This document shows, piece by piece, positions 695-19,474 of a stretch of 45,353 nucleotides of DNA. The translations under genes were made by a program, and so were the position numbers. The stretch comes from Ignavibacterium sp. (GTDB taxonomy: Bacteria; Bacteroidota; Ignavibacteria; Ignavibacteriales; Ignavibacteriaceae), in contig CP070637.1 of the NCBI GenBank assembly GCA_020354005.1, positions 2,042,615 through 2,087,967 on the forward strand, given 5' to 3'. The notes beneath the pieces are model-generated. The model saw only the letters and a list, made by a program, of their open reading frames with translations. It was not told the origin of the DNA and searched no databases. Numbering within the stretch: position 1 is the stretch's first letter; the number at the start of each line of letters is the position of its first letter.

Positions 695-1213
695 ATGAAA
701 TACAATTACTTCTTCTTATTCACATTAGTGTTTCTATTTTCCTCCCATTTGTTAGCCCAGGACGAAGACTACCAAATTGGATTGAATCCAAATTTCAGGG
801 GACAAGCTCAAGGTGGTTATTATGATTACTCCGATCCGGATGGGCTTAATATAAAAGTAGCGGTTTGGGGTTATGTTAAATATCCAGGCAGATATGTAAT
901 TCCTATTCGAAGTGATATTAATAGCTTGATCTCTTATGCAGGTGGTATAAATGATAATGCATTTCTAGATGATTTAAGAATTTACAGAGTTAAAAAAGAC
1001 TCGACTCAGGTAATGATCGGTTTTAATTATGAGGATCTATGGTGGAACGAAAGTTTATCAAAAGATCTCGATCTATCCAGATTGCATGCGGGTGATGTTT
1101 TAATAATACCGGGAAGACCAAGACTTTACTGGGAAAATTATTTAACTTTAACCCTTGCAACATTGGGATTTTTTATCTCTCTTGCTACGTTAATAATAAC
1201 GGCATCAAAATAG
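695..1213 (+). CDS. SLBB-domain envelope protein, likely exopolysaccharide export accessory
   Basis: A 172-residue protein with an N-terminal signal peptide (hydrophobic residues 5-20, cleavage likely after LLAQ). A beta-grasp SLBB-like region follows at about 52-98 (VWGYVKYPGRYVI, then a hydrophobic AGGI turn), and one membrane helix lies near the C-terminus (about 148-168). SLBB domains occur in Wza-type polysaccharide export proteins, but the Poly_export domain is absent and the protein is much shorter than Wza. The stop lies 12 bases before the Wzc-type kinase gene, so the two are almost certainly cotranscribed and probably cooperate at the periplasmic face. There is no clear Shine-Dalgarno; the leader is A/T only. 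The domain call is good; the exact role is inferred. Confidence 0.75.
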   Translation: MKYNYFFLFTLVFLFSSHLLAQDEDYQIGLNPNFRGQAQGGYYDYSDPDGLNIKVAVWGYVKYPGRYVIPIRSDINSLISYAGGINDNAFLDDLRIYRVKKDSTQVMIGFNYEDLWWNESLSKDLDLSRLHAGDVLIIPGRPRLYWENYLTLTLATLGFFISLATLIITASK

Positions 1214-1225
1214 CGGAATAAGAAT

Positions 1226-3457
1226 TTGGATAACGGAAAACAGAACGATCTATACAGCACGACTGATTCGAATACACTAAAAGATTATATCAGATTAATC
1301 AGGAACCACTGGGTTCCGGTTTTATTAATCAGTATAACCGGGCTTGTGGTTGCTATTGTGTATGCTGCAAACACAACCGATATTTATAAGTCTACTACAT
1401 CATTAAGAATATCTAAAACAAAGGGTGACGTTTTAACCTCGCCTCTTATGCCCGAATTTACAGACTGGGGAAATGACAGGTTTATAGCAAATGAGATTGA
1501 AGTGATGACTTCCTATACTACCCGGGAGAAGGTAGCCACTGCATTAATTGATAGTTACTATGTGAATCCTACACCTTCGCTTTACTCGGTCATATTGAAT
1601 GGTGATGTAGATTTATTTGATACACCGAGTTCACCAAAAACTGTTCCCAGTCTAACAAATTCATTGGGAGGAATTTCTATTGATCAAAAAAGGGGATTAG
1701 ATATAGTTGAAATAAGTGCTGAATCTCCCTCACCATATGAAGCCGGTTTGATTGCCAACACATATGCAGAGCAATATACCTTTATCAATTTAGATATGAA
1801 CAGGAACCAACTCCATCTTGTAACTGATTTTTTAAAAGAACAGAGAATAGAAAAGCAGCAAGAACTGAATGATGCTGAGGAAACGTTAAAGGACTTCCAG
1901 GAAAAAGGTGGTTTAATTGCATTGGATAAGAGAGCATCAACTCTTATAGATCTTCTTGCAGAATTTGAAGCAAAGAAGAGTGCAACACAGGTTGACCTAA
2001 TGGCTTCTAATAAAGTATTAGAAAATCTCAGGCTGGAACTTGAGAGCCAAAATCCCAAAATGGCAGATTATTTAAAGAGTCTCTCTTCGCAGACTTACAT
2101 AACTGCTATTCAGGATCAGATAGTTAAAATGGAAATTAACAGGGAAGTAGCACTATCAAAAAATGAGAACAGCAATGGTAATGCAGCGATAATAAAGGAA
2201 TATGATAGAAAAATTTCAGAACTGCAACAGGAGCTTGATAAAGAATTACAAGTATTAAAAGCCGGAATATTCGCAAGCAGTCCGCAGGAAGTAAAAGAAC
2301 TAACTCAGAAAATAATTGAAGAGGAAGTAAGGAACCAGGCACTACAAACCTCAATAAATGAACTGGATGGTATAGTAAAGAGTTACGAAGCCCGATTTAT
2401 GAAACTTCCAAAAAATACATTGGAACTTGCTAGATTAGAACGAAACTCTCAAGCATTAGAAAAATTGTATATTTTATTGGAGCAGCGTTACCAGGAGGCA
2501 TTGATTAATGTACAATCACAACCTGGCAATGTTATTATAATAGATAAGGCCAGAATACCTAAGAGTCCATCCAAACCGAATCGAACTTTGATAGTATTAA
2601 TTGGATTGGTTTTAGGAACTGGATTGGCAGTTGCTTATGTTTTCATAAAAAATTATTTCGACGATACAGTTAAAACACCTGAAGATATTCAGCATAAAAA
2701 TGTTAATGTATTAGCCTGGATTCCAAAAATCGAGGGTCTTGGTCTAAATGGTAAAAGTGATTTTCAATTCATTGTTGGTAAGAGTCCTGAATCAATTCCC
2801 AGCGAAGCATTCAGAGCCTTAAGAACCAGAGTTCTGTTTTCAAGAATAGAGAAAGAAACTCTTAAAACTATTCTCGTTACTTCCGCAGCACCAAAGGAAG
2901 GAAAGACTACCATTAGTATAAATCTAGCAGGTAGTTTTGCATTAACAAATAAAAAAACATTGTTGTTAGATTGCGATTTAAGAAAACCTCAGATTCATAG
3001 TATTTTCAAATCGCGCAGATCGCCAGGATTGATAGATTATTTATTTGGCGATGTTCTCTTAGATGAAATAGTTAAGACAACAGATGTTGATAATTTACAT
3101 TACATTACAACCGGTACAATTCCTCCAAATCCTGCTGAGATGCTGGATTCAGATCAAATGAGAAATTTGTTGGCTAAATTCCGCAATGAATATGATATGG
3201 TAATAATTGATTCCCCACCAATTATAGCCGTAACGGATTCTGAAATCTTATCTAATCTTGTCGACGGGACCTTGATAGTTGTTTCCGCCGATACAACCGA
3301 AATAGACCTGATGGAAAGGGCAGTTGAACTGATTAAAAGAGAAAATTCTCAATTCCTTGGTACTGTCCTTAACAATTTTAGTTACAAGAGTGGATATGGA
3401 TCCTACTATAAATACTACTATTATTACTCCAGTCCTGAATCGAAAAAGAAAGTTTAA
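1226..3457 (+). CDS. Polysaccharide co-polymerase and tyrosine autokinase (Wzc/BY-kinase type)
   Basis: A 743-residue protein combining a Wzz chain-length domain with a cytoplasmic bacterial tyrosine kinase. A first membrane helix (about 33-53) is followed by a long periplasmic coiled coil (about 200-430), a proline-rich segment (PKSPSKPNR) and a second helix (about 455-475). The kinase domain shows Walker A (APKEGKTT, about 553-562), Walker A' (LLLDCDLRKP, about 579) and Walker B (MVIIDSPP, about 657). The C-terminus is a tyrosine cluster (YGSYYKYYYYY), the usual autophosphorylation tail. The family controls polymer length and export of capsule or exopolysaccharide through phosphorylation cycles. 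It starts at TTG just after the SLBB gene. No Wza, Wzx, Wzy or glycosyltransferase gene is present in the window. Confidence 0.93.
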   Translation: MDNGKQNDLYSTTDSNTLKDYIRLIRNHWVPVLLISITGLVVAIVYAANTTDIYKSTTSLRISKTKGDVLTSPLMPEFTDWGNDRFIANEIEVMTSYTTREKVATALIDSYYVNPTPSLYSVILNGDVDLFDTPSSPKTVPSLTNSLGGISIDQKRGLDIVEISAESPSPYEAGLIANTYAEQYTFINLDMNRNQLHLVTDFLKEQRIEKQQELNDAEETLKDFQEKGGLIALDKRASTLIDLLAEFEAKKSATQVDLMASNKVLENLRLELESQNPKMADYLKSLSSQTYITAIQDQIVKMEINREVALSKNENSNGNAAIIKEYDRKISELQQELDKELQVLKAGIFASSPQEVKELTQKIIEEEVRNQALQTSINELDGIVKSYEARFMKLPKNTLELARLERNSQALEKLYILLEQRYQEALINVQSQPGNVIIIDKARIPKSPSKPNRTLIVLIGLVLGTGLAVAYVFIKNYFDDTVKTPEDIQHKNVNVLAWIPKIEGLGLNGKSDFQFIVGKSPESIPSEAFRALRTRVLFSRIEKETLKTILVTSAAPKEGKTTISINLAGSFALTNKKTLLLDCDLRKPQIHSIFKSRRSPGLIDYLFGDVLLDEIVKTTDVDNLHYITTGTIPPNPAEMLDSDQMRNLLAKFRNEYDMVIIDSPPIIAVTDSEILSNLVDGTLIVVSADTTEIDLMERAVELIKRENSQFLGTVLNNFSYKSGYGSYYKYYYYYSSPESKKKV

Positions 3458-10177: not shown

Positions 10178-10263
10178 GCCGGGGTGGCGGAATTGGTAGA
10201 CGCACTGGACTTAAAATCCAGTGGGAATTTATTCCCGTGCCGGTTCGAGTCCGGCCCTCGGTA
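10178..10263 (+). tRNA. tRNA-Leu (anticodon UAA)
   Basis: An 86-base class II tRNA. The acceptor strand GCCGGGG (10178-10184) pairs with CCTCGGT (10256-10262, with G-U pairs) and the discriminator is A. The anticodon stem CTGGA/TCCAG encloses the loop CTTAAAA, giving anticodon TAA. A long variable arm follows (GGGAATTTATTCCC), and the T arm is GCCGG-TTCGAGT-CCGGC. CCA is not encoded. It decodes UUA and UUG, frequent codons in this AT-rich genome. Confidence 0.97.
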
Positions 10264-10332: not shown

Positions 10333-10406
10333 GGGCTCTTAGCTCAGTTGGTTAGAGTGTCTGCTTGACGTGCAGAAGGTCATAGGTTCGAATCCTATAG
10401 AGCCCA
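10333..10406 (+). tRNA. tRNA-Val (anticodon GAC)
   Basis: A 74-base tRNA. The acceptor GGGCTCT (10333-10339) pairs with AGAGCCC (10399-10405) and the discriminator is A. The anticodon stem TCTGC/GCAGA encloses TTGACGT, giving anticodon GAC, and the T arm is ATAGG-TTCGAAT-CCTAT. CCA is not encoded. It follows tRNA-Leu by 69 bases and precedes a strong terminator by three bases. Confidence 0.97.
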
Positions 10407-17015: not shown

Positions 17016-17336
17016 ATGGTAGACATGGCAAAATACGAAGCAATGATAAAAGATTTGAGCACGCTCGAATCACAAATCACTATCTTGAAAAACCAGTTCG
17101 AAGATACAATCAACCGGAACAAAGAACTGGAAGTAGCTCTTGAAAAATCAAAACAGGATAATACATCGTTGTACCAGAAAATTGCTGCTTTAGATAAAGA
17201 ATTAGCTGCTATCAACAAAAGAGCCGAAGAGGGGCTGAGTTTATTAAGTTTAGAAGACAGAGAATCCTTCAAAAATAAATTGCAGGATTTAGTTTCAAGA
17301 ATTAATTATCACATGTCTGCGGAAGGGCAGGCATAA
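17016..17336 (+). CDS. Small coiled-coil protein, ZapB-like
   Basis: A 106-residue protein, almost entirely a predicted parallel coiled coil (about 8-75, with heptads such as LSTLESQITILKNQF) and a short helical tail. It has no signal or membrane segment. It follows pheT with no gap and precedes zapA by 41 bases. E. coli ZapB is a short coiled coil that bridges ZapA, so the position makes a Z-ring partner role plausible. Coiled coils are easily matched by chance, so this is inference from shape and context. A second in-frame ATG at 17025 is possible. Confidence 0.6.
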   Translation: MVDMAKYEAMIKDLSTLESQITILKNQFEDTINRNKELEVALEKSKQDNTSLYQKIAALDKELAAINKRAEEGLSLLSLEDRESFKNKLQDLVSRINYHMSAEGQA

Positions 17337-17377: not shown

Positions 17378-17674
17378 ATGACTGACAAAAAGAAGCTGAA
17401 AATAAAAATCTTCGATAAAGAGTACTCTTTATTAGTTGAGAATGAAGAAATAGCAAAAGAACTTGCTATTTATGTTAATAAAGTTATGGAAGAAACCAAA
17501 GACGAACTTCCAGATCAACCTGCGCAAACTATTGCGATTATTGCTTGTTTAAATATTGCCTATGATTTGTTTATTGAAAAAAACAGAAACCGCGAGTTTG
17601 TTATACAGGCATCAGACAAAGTAAAAAAGCTAAAGCTTCTTTTAAACGTTCCCGAAACATCCGACCCATCTTAA
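17378..17674 (+). CDS. zapA: Cell division protein ZapA
   Basis: A 98-residue ZapA-family protein. The N-terminal part (KKLKIKIFDKEYSLLVENEE) is the beta-rich ZapA head, followed by VNKVMEETKDELPDQPAQTIAIIACLNIAYDLF and a helical tail. ZapA cross-links FtsZ filaments at the division site. AAGGA lies five bases before ATG. The gene is followed by the structured RNA at 17680 and then rny. Confidence 0.9.
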   Translation: MTDKKKLKIKIFDKEYSLLVENEEIAKELAIYVNKVMEETKDELPDQPAQTIAIIACLNIAYDLFIEKNRNREFVIQASDKVKKLKLLLNVPETSDPS

Positions 17675-17679
17675 GGTTT

Positions 17680-17880
17680 GCCGCGCTGCCGCTCCCTTAC
17701 GATATGAAAAACTAACAGCATCATATTAGGGAGTACAACTTCGGCGTGTAATACAGGCCTCATCTTCAAACTTGTGTTGAAGAATTGCATTCGCAGCAGT
17801 GGAAGTAAGAAACGTTCGAGTGTATTCCCACTGTGAATAGATAGGGTTTTTCCTATTTATTAATAGCGGTAGCTGCGGCT
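17680..17880 (+). ncRNA. Structured non-coding RNA between zapA and rny; 6S RNA candidate
   Basis: About 200 bases with no open frame are closed by a long GC-rich stem. GCCGCGCTGCCGCT (17680-17693) pairs with AGCGGTAGCTGCGGC (17865-17879), 14 pairs with one bulge and one G-U. Inside lie further hairpins: CCCT/AGGG plus ATATGA/TCATAT (17694-17731), TCTTCAA/TTGAAGA (17763-17783), CAGTGG/CCACTG (17797-17833) and ATAGG/CCTAT (17841-17856). In many bacteria 6S RNA, a 180-200 base RNA polymerase regulator, lies next to zapA. Length, closing stem and position fit, but the fold I can draw is more branched than the E. coli rod. A cis leader of rny is the main alternative. Confidence 0.6.
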
Positions 17881-17911
17881 CTTAAAAAATAATTCCCATT
17901 CTGGAGGAAAG

Positions 17912-19474
17912 ATGGATCCGATTATACAAATAGTGATTGTGTCTGGGTTAGTAGCTTTGTTTTTCTACTTGGGTTGGTTATTTAATTCCAAAATAGGAAA
18001 GAAAAGCCTAGTATCTGCCGAAGAGAGAGCAAAACAAATTCTTGCCGATGCTGATAAGGAAGCCAAAAATCTTAAGAGAGAAAAGCTGCTTGAAGTAAAA
18101 GATGAATGGTATAAAAAGAAAGTTGAATTTGATAACGAAGTAAATCAGAAAAGACAGAAGATAAGCAACGTTGAGAAACAAATTGCTACCCGTGAAGAAA
18201 ATGCGGAGAAAAAGTTAGACCTAGTTCTTCAAAAAGAAAGGGCGAACAAAAAAACCGAGAAAGAAATAACTGAGCTTAAAGCATCTCTTGAAGGTAAAAA
18301 ACAAAAGTTACACAACGCAGAACTTGAACAGAATCAACGGCTTGAGAAAATATCTGGTCTAACTTCCGAAGAAGCAAAGAACATGCTTATGGAAAATATG
18401 GTCAATCAGGCAAAGATTGACTCCAGCCAGATGATAAAAGAATTGCACGACAAAGCAAGAGTCGATGCTAAGAGAGAGGCACAGAAAATAATTATCCAAT
18501 CAATTCAAAGAACTGCTGCTGACCACTCTATTGAAACTACCGTTTCGGTCGTTCAAATCCAGAGCGATGAAATGAAGGGACGAATAATTGGAAAAGAAGG
18601 ACGCAACATTCGTGCATTTGAATCTTCTACAGGTGTTGATGTAATTGTTGACGACACACCGGAAGCGGTTATACTTTCATCGTTCGATCAGTTCCGCAGG
18701 GAAATTGCCAGAGTTTCGTTAGAAAAATTAATTGCAGATGGCAGAATTCATCCTGCACGAATTGAAGAGGTTGTAGAAAAAACAAAGCAGGAACTTGAAG
18801 AGGAGATGATAAGGGAAGGTGAAAACACAGTACTTCAGTTGGGCCTGCATAATATGCATAATGAACTGATAAAGCATGTTGGCAGAATGAAATACCGTTC
18901 AAGTTTTGGGCAGAACCTGCTTAATCATAGTGTTGAGGTCGCATATTTAACAGGCATTATGGCTGCTGAGCTTGGTATAGAAACAGGTCTTGCAAAAAGA
19001 GCCGGACTGCTTCATGATATTGGAAAGACAGTTGATAAAAGTGTTGAAGGACCGCATGCTCTGCTTGGTTATGATTTAACAAAACGCTATAAAGAAAATG
19101 CAATTGTAGTAAATGCTGTTGGTTCTCATCACGAAGATATTGCAATGGAGCATCCTATAGCTGCTTTAGTTCAGGCGGCAGATGCTGTTAGTGGTGCAAG
19201 ACCCGGGGCTCGTAGAGAGCCTTTGGAAAGTTATGTGAAACGATTAGAGAATCTTGAAACGCTCGCTAAGTCATTTGAGGGCGTTGCAAAAACTTACGCA
19301 ATACAAGCAGGCAGGGAAGTCAGGGTTGTTGTTGAACATGAAAAGATCGATGACCTCGTGGCTGATAAACTTGCAAGAGATATATCTTCGAAGATTGAAG
19401 AAGAAATGGACTATCCGGGACAGATTAAGGTTACTGTTATCCGCGAAGTTCGAAAAATCAGTTATGCTAAATAA
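17912..19474 (+). CDS. rny: Ribonuclease Y
   Basis: A 520-residue membrane-anchored endoribonuclease that starts mRNA decay. An N-terminal membrane helix (about 5-25) is followed by a long charged coiled coil (about 30-200), a KH RNA-binding domain (GRIIGKEGRNIRAFE, about 215-275) and an HD hydrolase domain with LLHDIGKTVD (about 366) and NAVGSHHED. Length matches the family (about 510-520). A good GGAGG site precedes ATG. The upstream structured RNA leaves about 30 bases before the start. Confidence 0.97.
   Translation: MDPIIQIVIVSGLVALFFYLGWLFNSKIGKKSLVSAEERAKQILADADKEAKNLKREKLLEVKDEWYKKKVEFDNEVNQKRQKISNVEKQIATREENAEKKLDLVLQKERANKKTEKEITELKASLEGKKQKLHNAELEQNQRLEKISGLTSEEAKNMLMENMVNQAKIDSSQMIKELHDKARVDAKREAQKIIIQSIQRTAADHSIETTVSVVQIQSDEMKGRIIGKEGRNIRAFESSTGVDVIVDDTPEAVILSSFDQFRREIARVSLEKLIADGRIHPARIEEVVEKTKQELEEEMIREGENTVLQLGLHNMHNELIKHVGRMKYRSSFGQNLLNHSVEVAYLTGIMAAELGIETGLAKRAGLLHDIGKTVDKSVEGPHALLGYDLTKRYKENAIVVNAVGSHHEDIAMEHPIAALVQAADAVSGARPGARREPLESYVKRLENLETLAKSFEGVAKTYAIQAGREVRVVVEHEKIDDLVADKLARDISSKIEEEMDYPGQIKVTVIREVRKISYAK

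What the first reader, a model, noticed from the sequence alone, without database searches (positions are those of the whole stretch)
17680..17880. Unannotated ~200-base structured RNA between zapA and rny
Directly visible: a 14-pair GC-rich closing stem and at least four inner hairpins fill the whole gap, in DNA that is otherwise AT-rich and unstructured. Known: 6S RNA (SsrS) is often next to zapA and is about this long, and Bacteroidota have divergent forms (6S-Flavo). Inferred: this is a divergent 6S RNA or a new RNA of the phylum. The drawn fold is more branched than the classic rod with a central bubble, so a novel class or an rny leader remains open.
Basis: partly seen in the sequence, partly recalled or inferred. 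Interest (0 to 1): 0.7.

Follow-up and report, generated by a model that had tools for sequence, protein, structure and literature searches.

The report
Divergent 6S RNA between zapA and rny
The gap holds the gene for 6S RNA, a widespread bacterial RNA that imitates an open promoter and holds RNA polymerase in check; the public RNA library misses it only because its sequence has drifted.

Summary
The zapA–rny gap holds a ~200-nt structured RNA (core 17681-17878, + strand), the most stable stretch of its length in the window. It is a 6S RNA. Rfam's 6S model (RF00013) matches it over its full length at 34.8 bits, below the curated cut-off of 46.4, with E = 1.2e-5 for the 361-base stretch; it is the only 6S match in the 2.8-Mb genome. 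Three relatives with the RNA in the same place pass the cut-off. Comparative analysis (20, then 78 sequences) gives the 6S architecture: closing stem, large central bubble with an open 5' side and a small hairpin on the 3' side, and an interrupted apical arm. Of 35 pairs, 26 show compensatory changes. A model built from the relatives finds one copy in 124 of 149 genomes of the class. Every checked locus has it just upstream of rny. The separate Rfam family 6S-Flavo also sits upstream of rny in Flavobacteria (15 of 15 loci). Transcription, polymerase binding and pRNA synthesis are inferred. This is a new member of a known kind, useful mainly for annotation.

The parts
17681..17878 (+). 6S RNA (ssrS), core from closing stem to closing stem; true ends unknown to within a few nt (Rfam match spans 17675-17885)
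   Evidence: RF00013 34.8 bits full length; model R1 192 bits; covariation
17680..17693 (+). closing stem, 5' strand
   Evidence: pairs with 17865-17879; 7 of the 11 pairs tested have compensatory changes in 20 sequences, all 11 in 78 sequences
17694..17728 (+). 5' side of the central bubble, mostly unpaired; contains the conserved A-rich GAAAAACUAAC block
   Evidence: a local hairpin here is seen in some species only
17713..17716 (+). predicted start site for pRNA synthesis (counterpart of E. coli U44), template read towards 17700
   Evidence: E. coli U44 is RF00013 position 45; that position falls on 17715 here and on or near the same motif in L018, L027, L108. Low alignment confidence; inference
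17729..17759 (+). apical arm, 5' strand (invariant GGG at 17729-17731; ACAGGCC at 17753-17759)
17760..17800 (+). variable apical hairpins
   Evidence: length and sequence vary between relatives, local hairpins recur
17801..17829 (+). apical arm, 3' strand (GGAAG at 17801-17805, CCC at 17827-17829)
17830..17864 (+). 3' side of the central bubble
17836..17861 (+). small hairpin inside the 3' side of the bubble (AAUAGAUAGGG-UUUU-UCCUAUUUAUU)
   Evidence: 4-pair core kept in 88-89% of cells, 3 pairs with compensatory changes
17865..17879 (+). closing stem, 3' strand
   Evidence: as for the 5' strand
17378..17674 (+). zapA, upstream neighbour
   Evidence: Pfam PF05164
17912..19474 (+). rny (RNase Y), downstream neighbour; its ribosome-binding site GGAGG lies at 17903-17907, about 25 nt behind the RNA
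   Evidence: Pfam PF12072, PF01966, PF00013

Best explanation
17681-17878 encodes the 6S RNA of this bacterium, a relative of the class Ignavibacteria. Shown: homology, conserved structure, a single copy per genome and conserved position. Inferred from 6S RNA in E. coli and B. subtilis: the folded rod with its open bubble imitates a melted promoter, occupies the active site of the housekeeping sigma-factor RNA polymerase when cells slow down, and is released when the polymerase copies a short pRNA from the 5' side of the bubble, here probably starting at 17713-17716 and reading GUUAGUUUUUC or AGUUUUUC. With a 3' bubble hairpin predicted in the free RNA and an open 5' side, it resembles the B. 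subtilis type more than the E. coli type. Because zapA ends 6 nt before the RNA and the rny ribosome-binding site starts about 25 nt behind it, the RNA is probably cut from, or shares, a zapA-6S-rny transcript.
For: RF00013 matches full length, 34.8 bits, E 1.2e-5, the only match in the genome. Relatives with the RNA in the same place pass the curated cut-off: L018 48.3, L108 47.7, L027 47.1 bits. RNAalifold, not told about 6S, returns closing stem, bubble, apical arm and 3'-bubble hairpin. Covariation: 94.3% of cells paired against 39-54% when slid; 61 compensatory cells against 19.8 shuffled; with 78 sequences 26 of 35 pairs and 364 cells against 103. Model R1 gives one copy in 124 of 149 genomes of the class, and on the phylum sample lands on the same places as all 24 RF00013 matches. 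rny is next door in all RF00013 loci checked, in all 80 rny loci of named relatives and in all 15 6S-Flavo loci tested. E. coli ssrS also directly follows zapA.
Against: The window's own score is below the RF00013 gathering score, as is that of most relatives. No expression data. The minimum-energy fold of the single sequence is 6.6 kcal/mol better than the consensus rod. R1 was built partly from sequences found with RF00013, so the two are not fully independent.
Confidence: 0.96

Rival explanations
1. It is a 5' leader of rny that regulates RNase Y in cis, for example by autoregulation, rather than a free RNA.
For: It is always upstream of rny with a short gap, median 33 nt over 76 loci; the window has no terminator between the RNA and rny.
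Against: The conserved parts are those of 6S RNA, which in E. coli lies next to zapA without rny. No conserved pairing reaches the ribosome-binding site. In many divergent relatives a T-run follows the closing stem, as expected if transcription ends before rny. Both roles could coexist.
Confidence: 0.03
2. It is an Ms1-like RNA that binds core RNA polymerase without the sigma factor.
For: Ms1 is structurally related to 6S RNA and is also found by synteny (PMC9130861).
Against: Ms1 is reported from Actinobacteria with different neighbours (PMC9130861). The search of all Rfam families gave only 6S and one chance-level SAM-II match. Polymerase binding itself could not be tested.
Confidence: 0.01
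3. It is a new structured RNA class with branched inner hairpins, as first drawn.
For: The minimum-energy fold of the single sequence is branched and 6.6 kcal/mol more stable.
Against: The branched fold uses the invariant GGG and CCC in other pairings; the consensus fold that keeps them together has strong covariation, and the local 5'-bubble hairpin is seen in some species only.
Confidence: 0.01

Closest known systems
6S RNA / SsrS (Rfam RF00013), e.g. E. coli ssrS
   Same: Length, rod with central bubble, conserved blocks GGG...GCA(A/G)GCC...GGAAGC...CCCACC, position directly behind zapA.
   Different: Sequence too diverged for the Rfam cut-off; longer apical hairpins; rny instead of fau downstream; 3'-bubble hairpin predicted in the free RNA.
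B. subtilis 6S-1 RNA (type)
   Same: 3'-bubble hairpin in the free RNA and an open 5' side of the bubble (PMC8876501).
   Different: No conserved central-bubble-collapse helix could be shown in the segment tested.
6S-Flavo (Rfam RF01685)
   Same: Next to rny in all 15 loci tested, and behind a zapA gene in the one locus read.
   Different: No RF01685 match in this genome.
6S RNA of Bacteroides thetaiotaomicron
   Same: Same phylum in GTDB; expressed, with two classes of pRNA detected (PMC7366714).
   Different: Not compared directly here.

Membership tests
6S RNA (RF00013) | Covariance-model match | tested here: inconclusive
   34.8 bits, below the cut-off of 46.4 but full length and E 1.2e-5; three relatives with the RNA in the same place pass the cut-off
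6S RNA (RF00013) | Rod of ~200 nt: closing stem, central bubble, apical arm | tested here: met
   RNAalifold consensus and covariation
6S RNA (RF00013) | Single-copy gene, often next to zapA | tested here: met
   E. coli comparison
6S RNA (RF00013) | Binds the housekeeping RNA polymerase holoenzyme | not testable with these tools
   needs biochemistry
6S RNA (RF00013) | Template for pRNA from the 5' side of the bubble | not testable with these tools
   only the likely start site could be mapped
6S RNA (RF00013) | Discrete transcript that accumulates in stationary phase | not testable with these tools
   no RNA-seq held
6S-Flavo (RF01685) | Covariance-model match | tested here: not met
   no match in the genome; the model works in 21 of 198 genomes of the phylum
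Ms1 RNA | Actinobacterial distribution and neighbours; binds core polymerase | tested here: not met
   neighbours are zapA and rny and the relatives are Ignavibacteria; core binding not testable

The most novel reading that the evidence does not exclude
The conserved 6S-rny linkage in Ignavibacteria, the RF00013-positive family f21 and Flavobacteria is functional: RNase Y matures or degrades the 6S RNA encoded just before it, or the 6S structure on the shared transcript controls rny, tying polymerase sequestration to RNA turnover.
Probability: 0.2. Interest if true: 0.6.

Novelty: new member of a known kind. Interest (0 to 1): 0.3.

Why it matters
It gives the class Ignavibacteria a 6S RNA that standard annotation misses: of 116 genomes of the order only 1 passes the Rfam cut-off, whereas a lineage model finds it in 124 of 149 genomes of the class. 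It also shows that 6S and 6S-Flavo, two separate Rfam families, occupy the same place before rny, which argues that they are one gene by descent and makes the gap before rny a place to look for missing 6S RNAs in the phylum.

Tried and rejected
Rfam at gathering scores on the whole window: only two tRNAs. 6S-Flavo model on the genome: none. Sigma-70-type promoter scan: nothing above chance; no terminator behind the RNA in the window. A hairpin on the 5' side of the bubble: own flanks pair slightly better than mismatched flanks of other species (-2.3 against -1.2 kcal/mol), strong in a few species, absent in others; not a conserved element. Central-bubble-collapse helix: no better than mismatched partners in the segment tested (permutation p 0.998). 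The reference survey of 6S RNA (Wehner 2014, PMC4615782) is not held, so whether it lists this class could not be checked; no held paper has both '6S RNA' and 'Ignavibacteri'. Weak minus-strand R1 matches at the same places reflect the self-complementary rod and were left out of A3.

Full report
What is there. The gap between zapA (17378-17674) and rny (17912-19474) holds no open frame of 60 codons or more. It is strongly structured: z = -5.1 against dinucleotide shuffles, and the core 17681-17878 is more stable than every one of 457 tiles of its length in the window.

What it is. At curated thresholds Rfam finds nothing in the gap. With the E-value threshold on the 361-base stretch, the 6S model RF00013 aligns over its whole length, positions 1-187, to 17675-17885: 34.8 bits, E = 1.2e-5, cut-off 46.4. 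In the whole 2.8-Mb genome it is the only match. Named relatives are mostly MAGs labelled Ignavibacteria, Ignavibacteriales or Bacteroidetes. Three relatives with the RNA in the same place pass the cut-off: L018 (48.3 bits), L108 (47.7) and L027 (47.1). So the shortfall reflects sequence drift in this lineage.

Structure. DNA searches and RF00013 gave 20 non-identical sequences including the window's own. RNAalifold on their alignment, without any 6S input, returns an 11-pair closing stem, a large bubble, an interrupted apical arm and a 4-pair hairpin on the 3' side of the bubble. This is the 6S plan as described for B. subtilis 6S-1 RNA (PMC8876501). Counting pairs on it: 94.3% of cells are standard pairs against 39-54% when the strands are slid; 18 of 35 pairs and 61 cells have compensatory changes, against 10.3 and 19.8 in shuffles. 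With 78 sequences fitted to the model, 26 pairs and 364 cells do, against 17.4 and 103; that alignment leans to the model.

Distribution and place. A covariance model built from the 20 sequences (R1) finds one copy in 124 of 149 genomes of the class and in 106 of 198 of the phylum, where its places coincide with all 24 RF00013 matches. R1 is not fully independent, since some of its members were found with RF00013. Among 80 named relatives fetched by their rny protein, all 80 have an R1 match on the same strand just upstream of rny. Over 76 measurable loci the RNA starts a median of 10 nt behind zapA and ends a median of 33 nt before rny. The more distant family f21, found by RF00013, also has it next to rny; zapA was not detected there by sequence. 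6S-Flavo, a separate Rfam family described as having the function of a previously validated RNA class (PMC2864571), lies next to rny in 15 of 15 loci tested, and in the one locus read (L161) behind a zapA gene. In E. coli, ssrS also directly follows zapA; the link of 6S with zapA in beta- and gamma-proteobacteria is described in PMC7641849.

How it works, by inference. 6S RNA imitates an open promoter, binds the housekeeping polymerase holoenzyme and is released when the polymerase copies a short pRNA from the 5' side of the bubble (PMC8876501). 6S RNA and pRNAs have been detected in Bacteroides thetaiotaomicron (PMC7366714). Here the most conserved unpaired stretch of the 5' side is the A-rich GAAAAACUAAC at 17706-17716. 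E. coli U44, the known pRNA start there (own knowledge), is RF00013 position 45, which falls on 17715 in the window and on or near the same motif in three relatives. I therefore predict pRNA synthesis from 17713-17716 towards 17700. The alignment is uncertain by a few bases.

Biogenesis. zapA ends 6 nt before the RNA, so a promoter of its own would lie inside zapA; the simple scan found none above chance. The window has no terminator between the RNA and rny. In many more distant relatives the closing stem is followed at once by a T-run, which suggests termination there. In the window's own lineage, processing from a shared zapA-6S-rny transcript is the likelier route. E. coli 6S is processed from an ssrS-fau transcript (PMC7641849). 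Whether RNase Y takes part is an open and testable question.

Verdict. A divergent member of a known RNA family in its expected place. The identification is firm; the function is inferred. Whether the published 6S survey (Wehner 2014) already lists this class could not be checked.

Noticed in passing
L107-L129, just behind the R1 match (e.g. L113:2461-2476, L125, L116): In many distant relatives the 6S closing stem is followed at once by a T-run (7-8 T in 8 nt), which would make the closing stem double as a terminator; the window lacks it and its nearest relatives have at most a weak one.
   Followed up: partly
L161 (flavobacterial 6S-Flavo locus), 837-3107: Same gene order as the window: small coiled-coil-like protein, ZapA (Pfam hit), 6S-Flavo, rny. 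Suggests that RF00013-like and 6S-Flavo RNAs of this phylum are orthologous.
   Followed up: partly
window 17016-17336: 106-aa coiled-coil-like protein directly before zapA, no Pfam match; a similar-sized frame precedes zapA in L161. Possibly a ZapB-like partner.
   Followed up: no
whole genome G000: The assembly is one contig of 2.80 Mb with estimated completeness 80%, while the genus relatives have 3.4-4.1 Mb; either a reduced genome or an incomplete one.
   Followed up: no
window 10178-10263 and 10333-10406: Two tRNA genes (59.3 and 72.9 bits), the only Rfam matches of the window at gathering scores.
   Followed up: no
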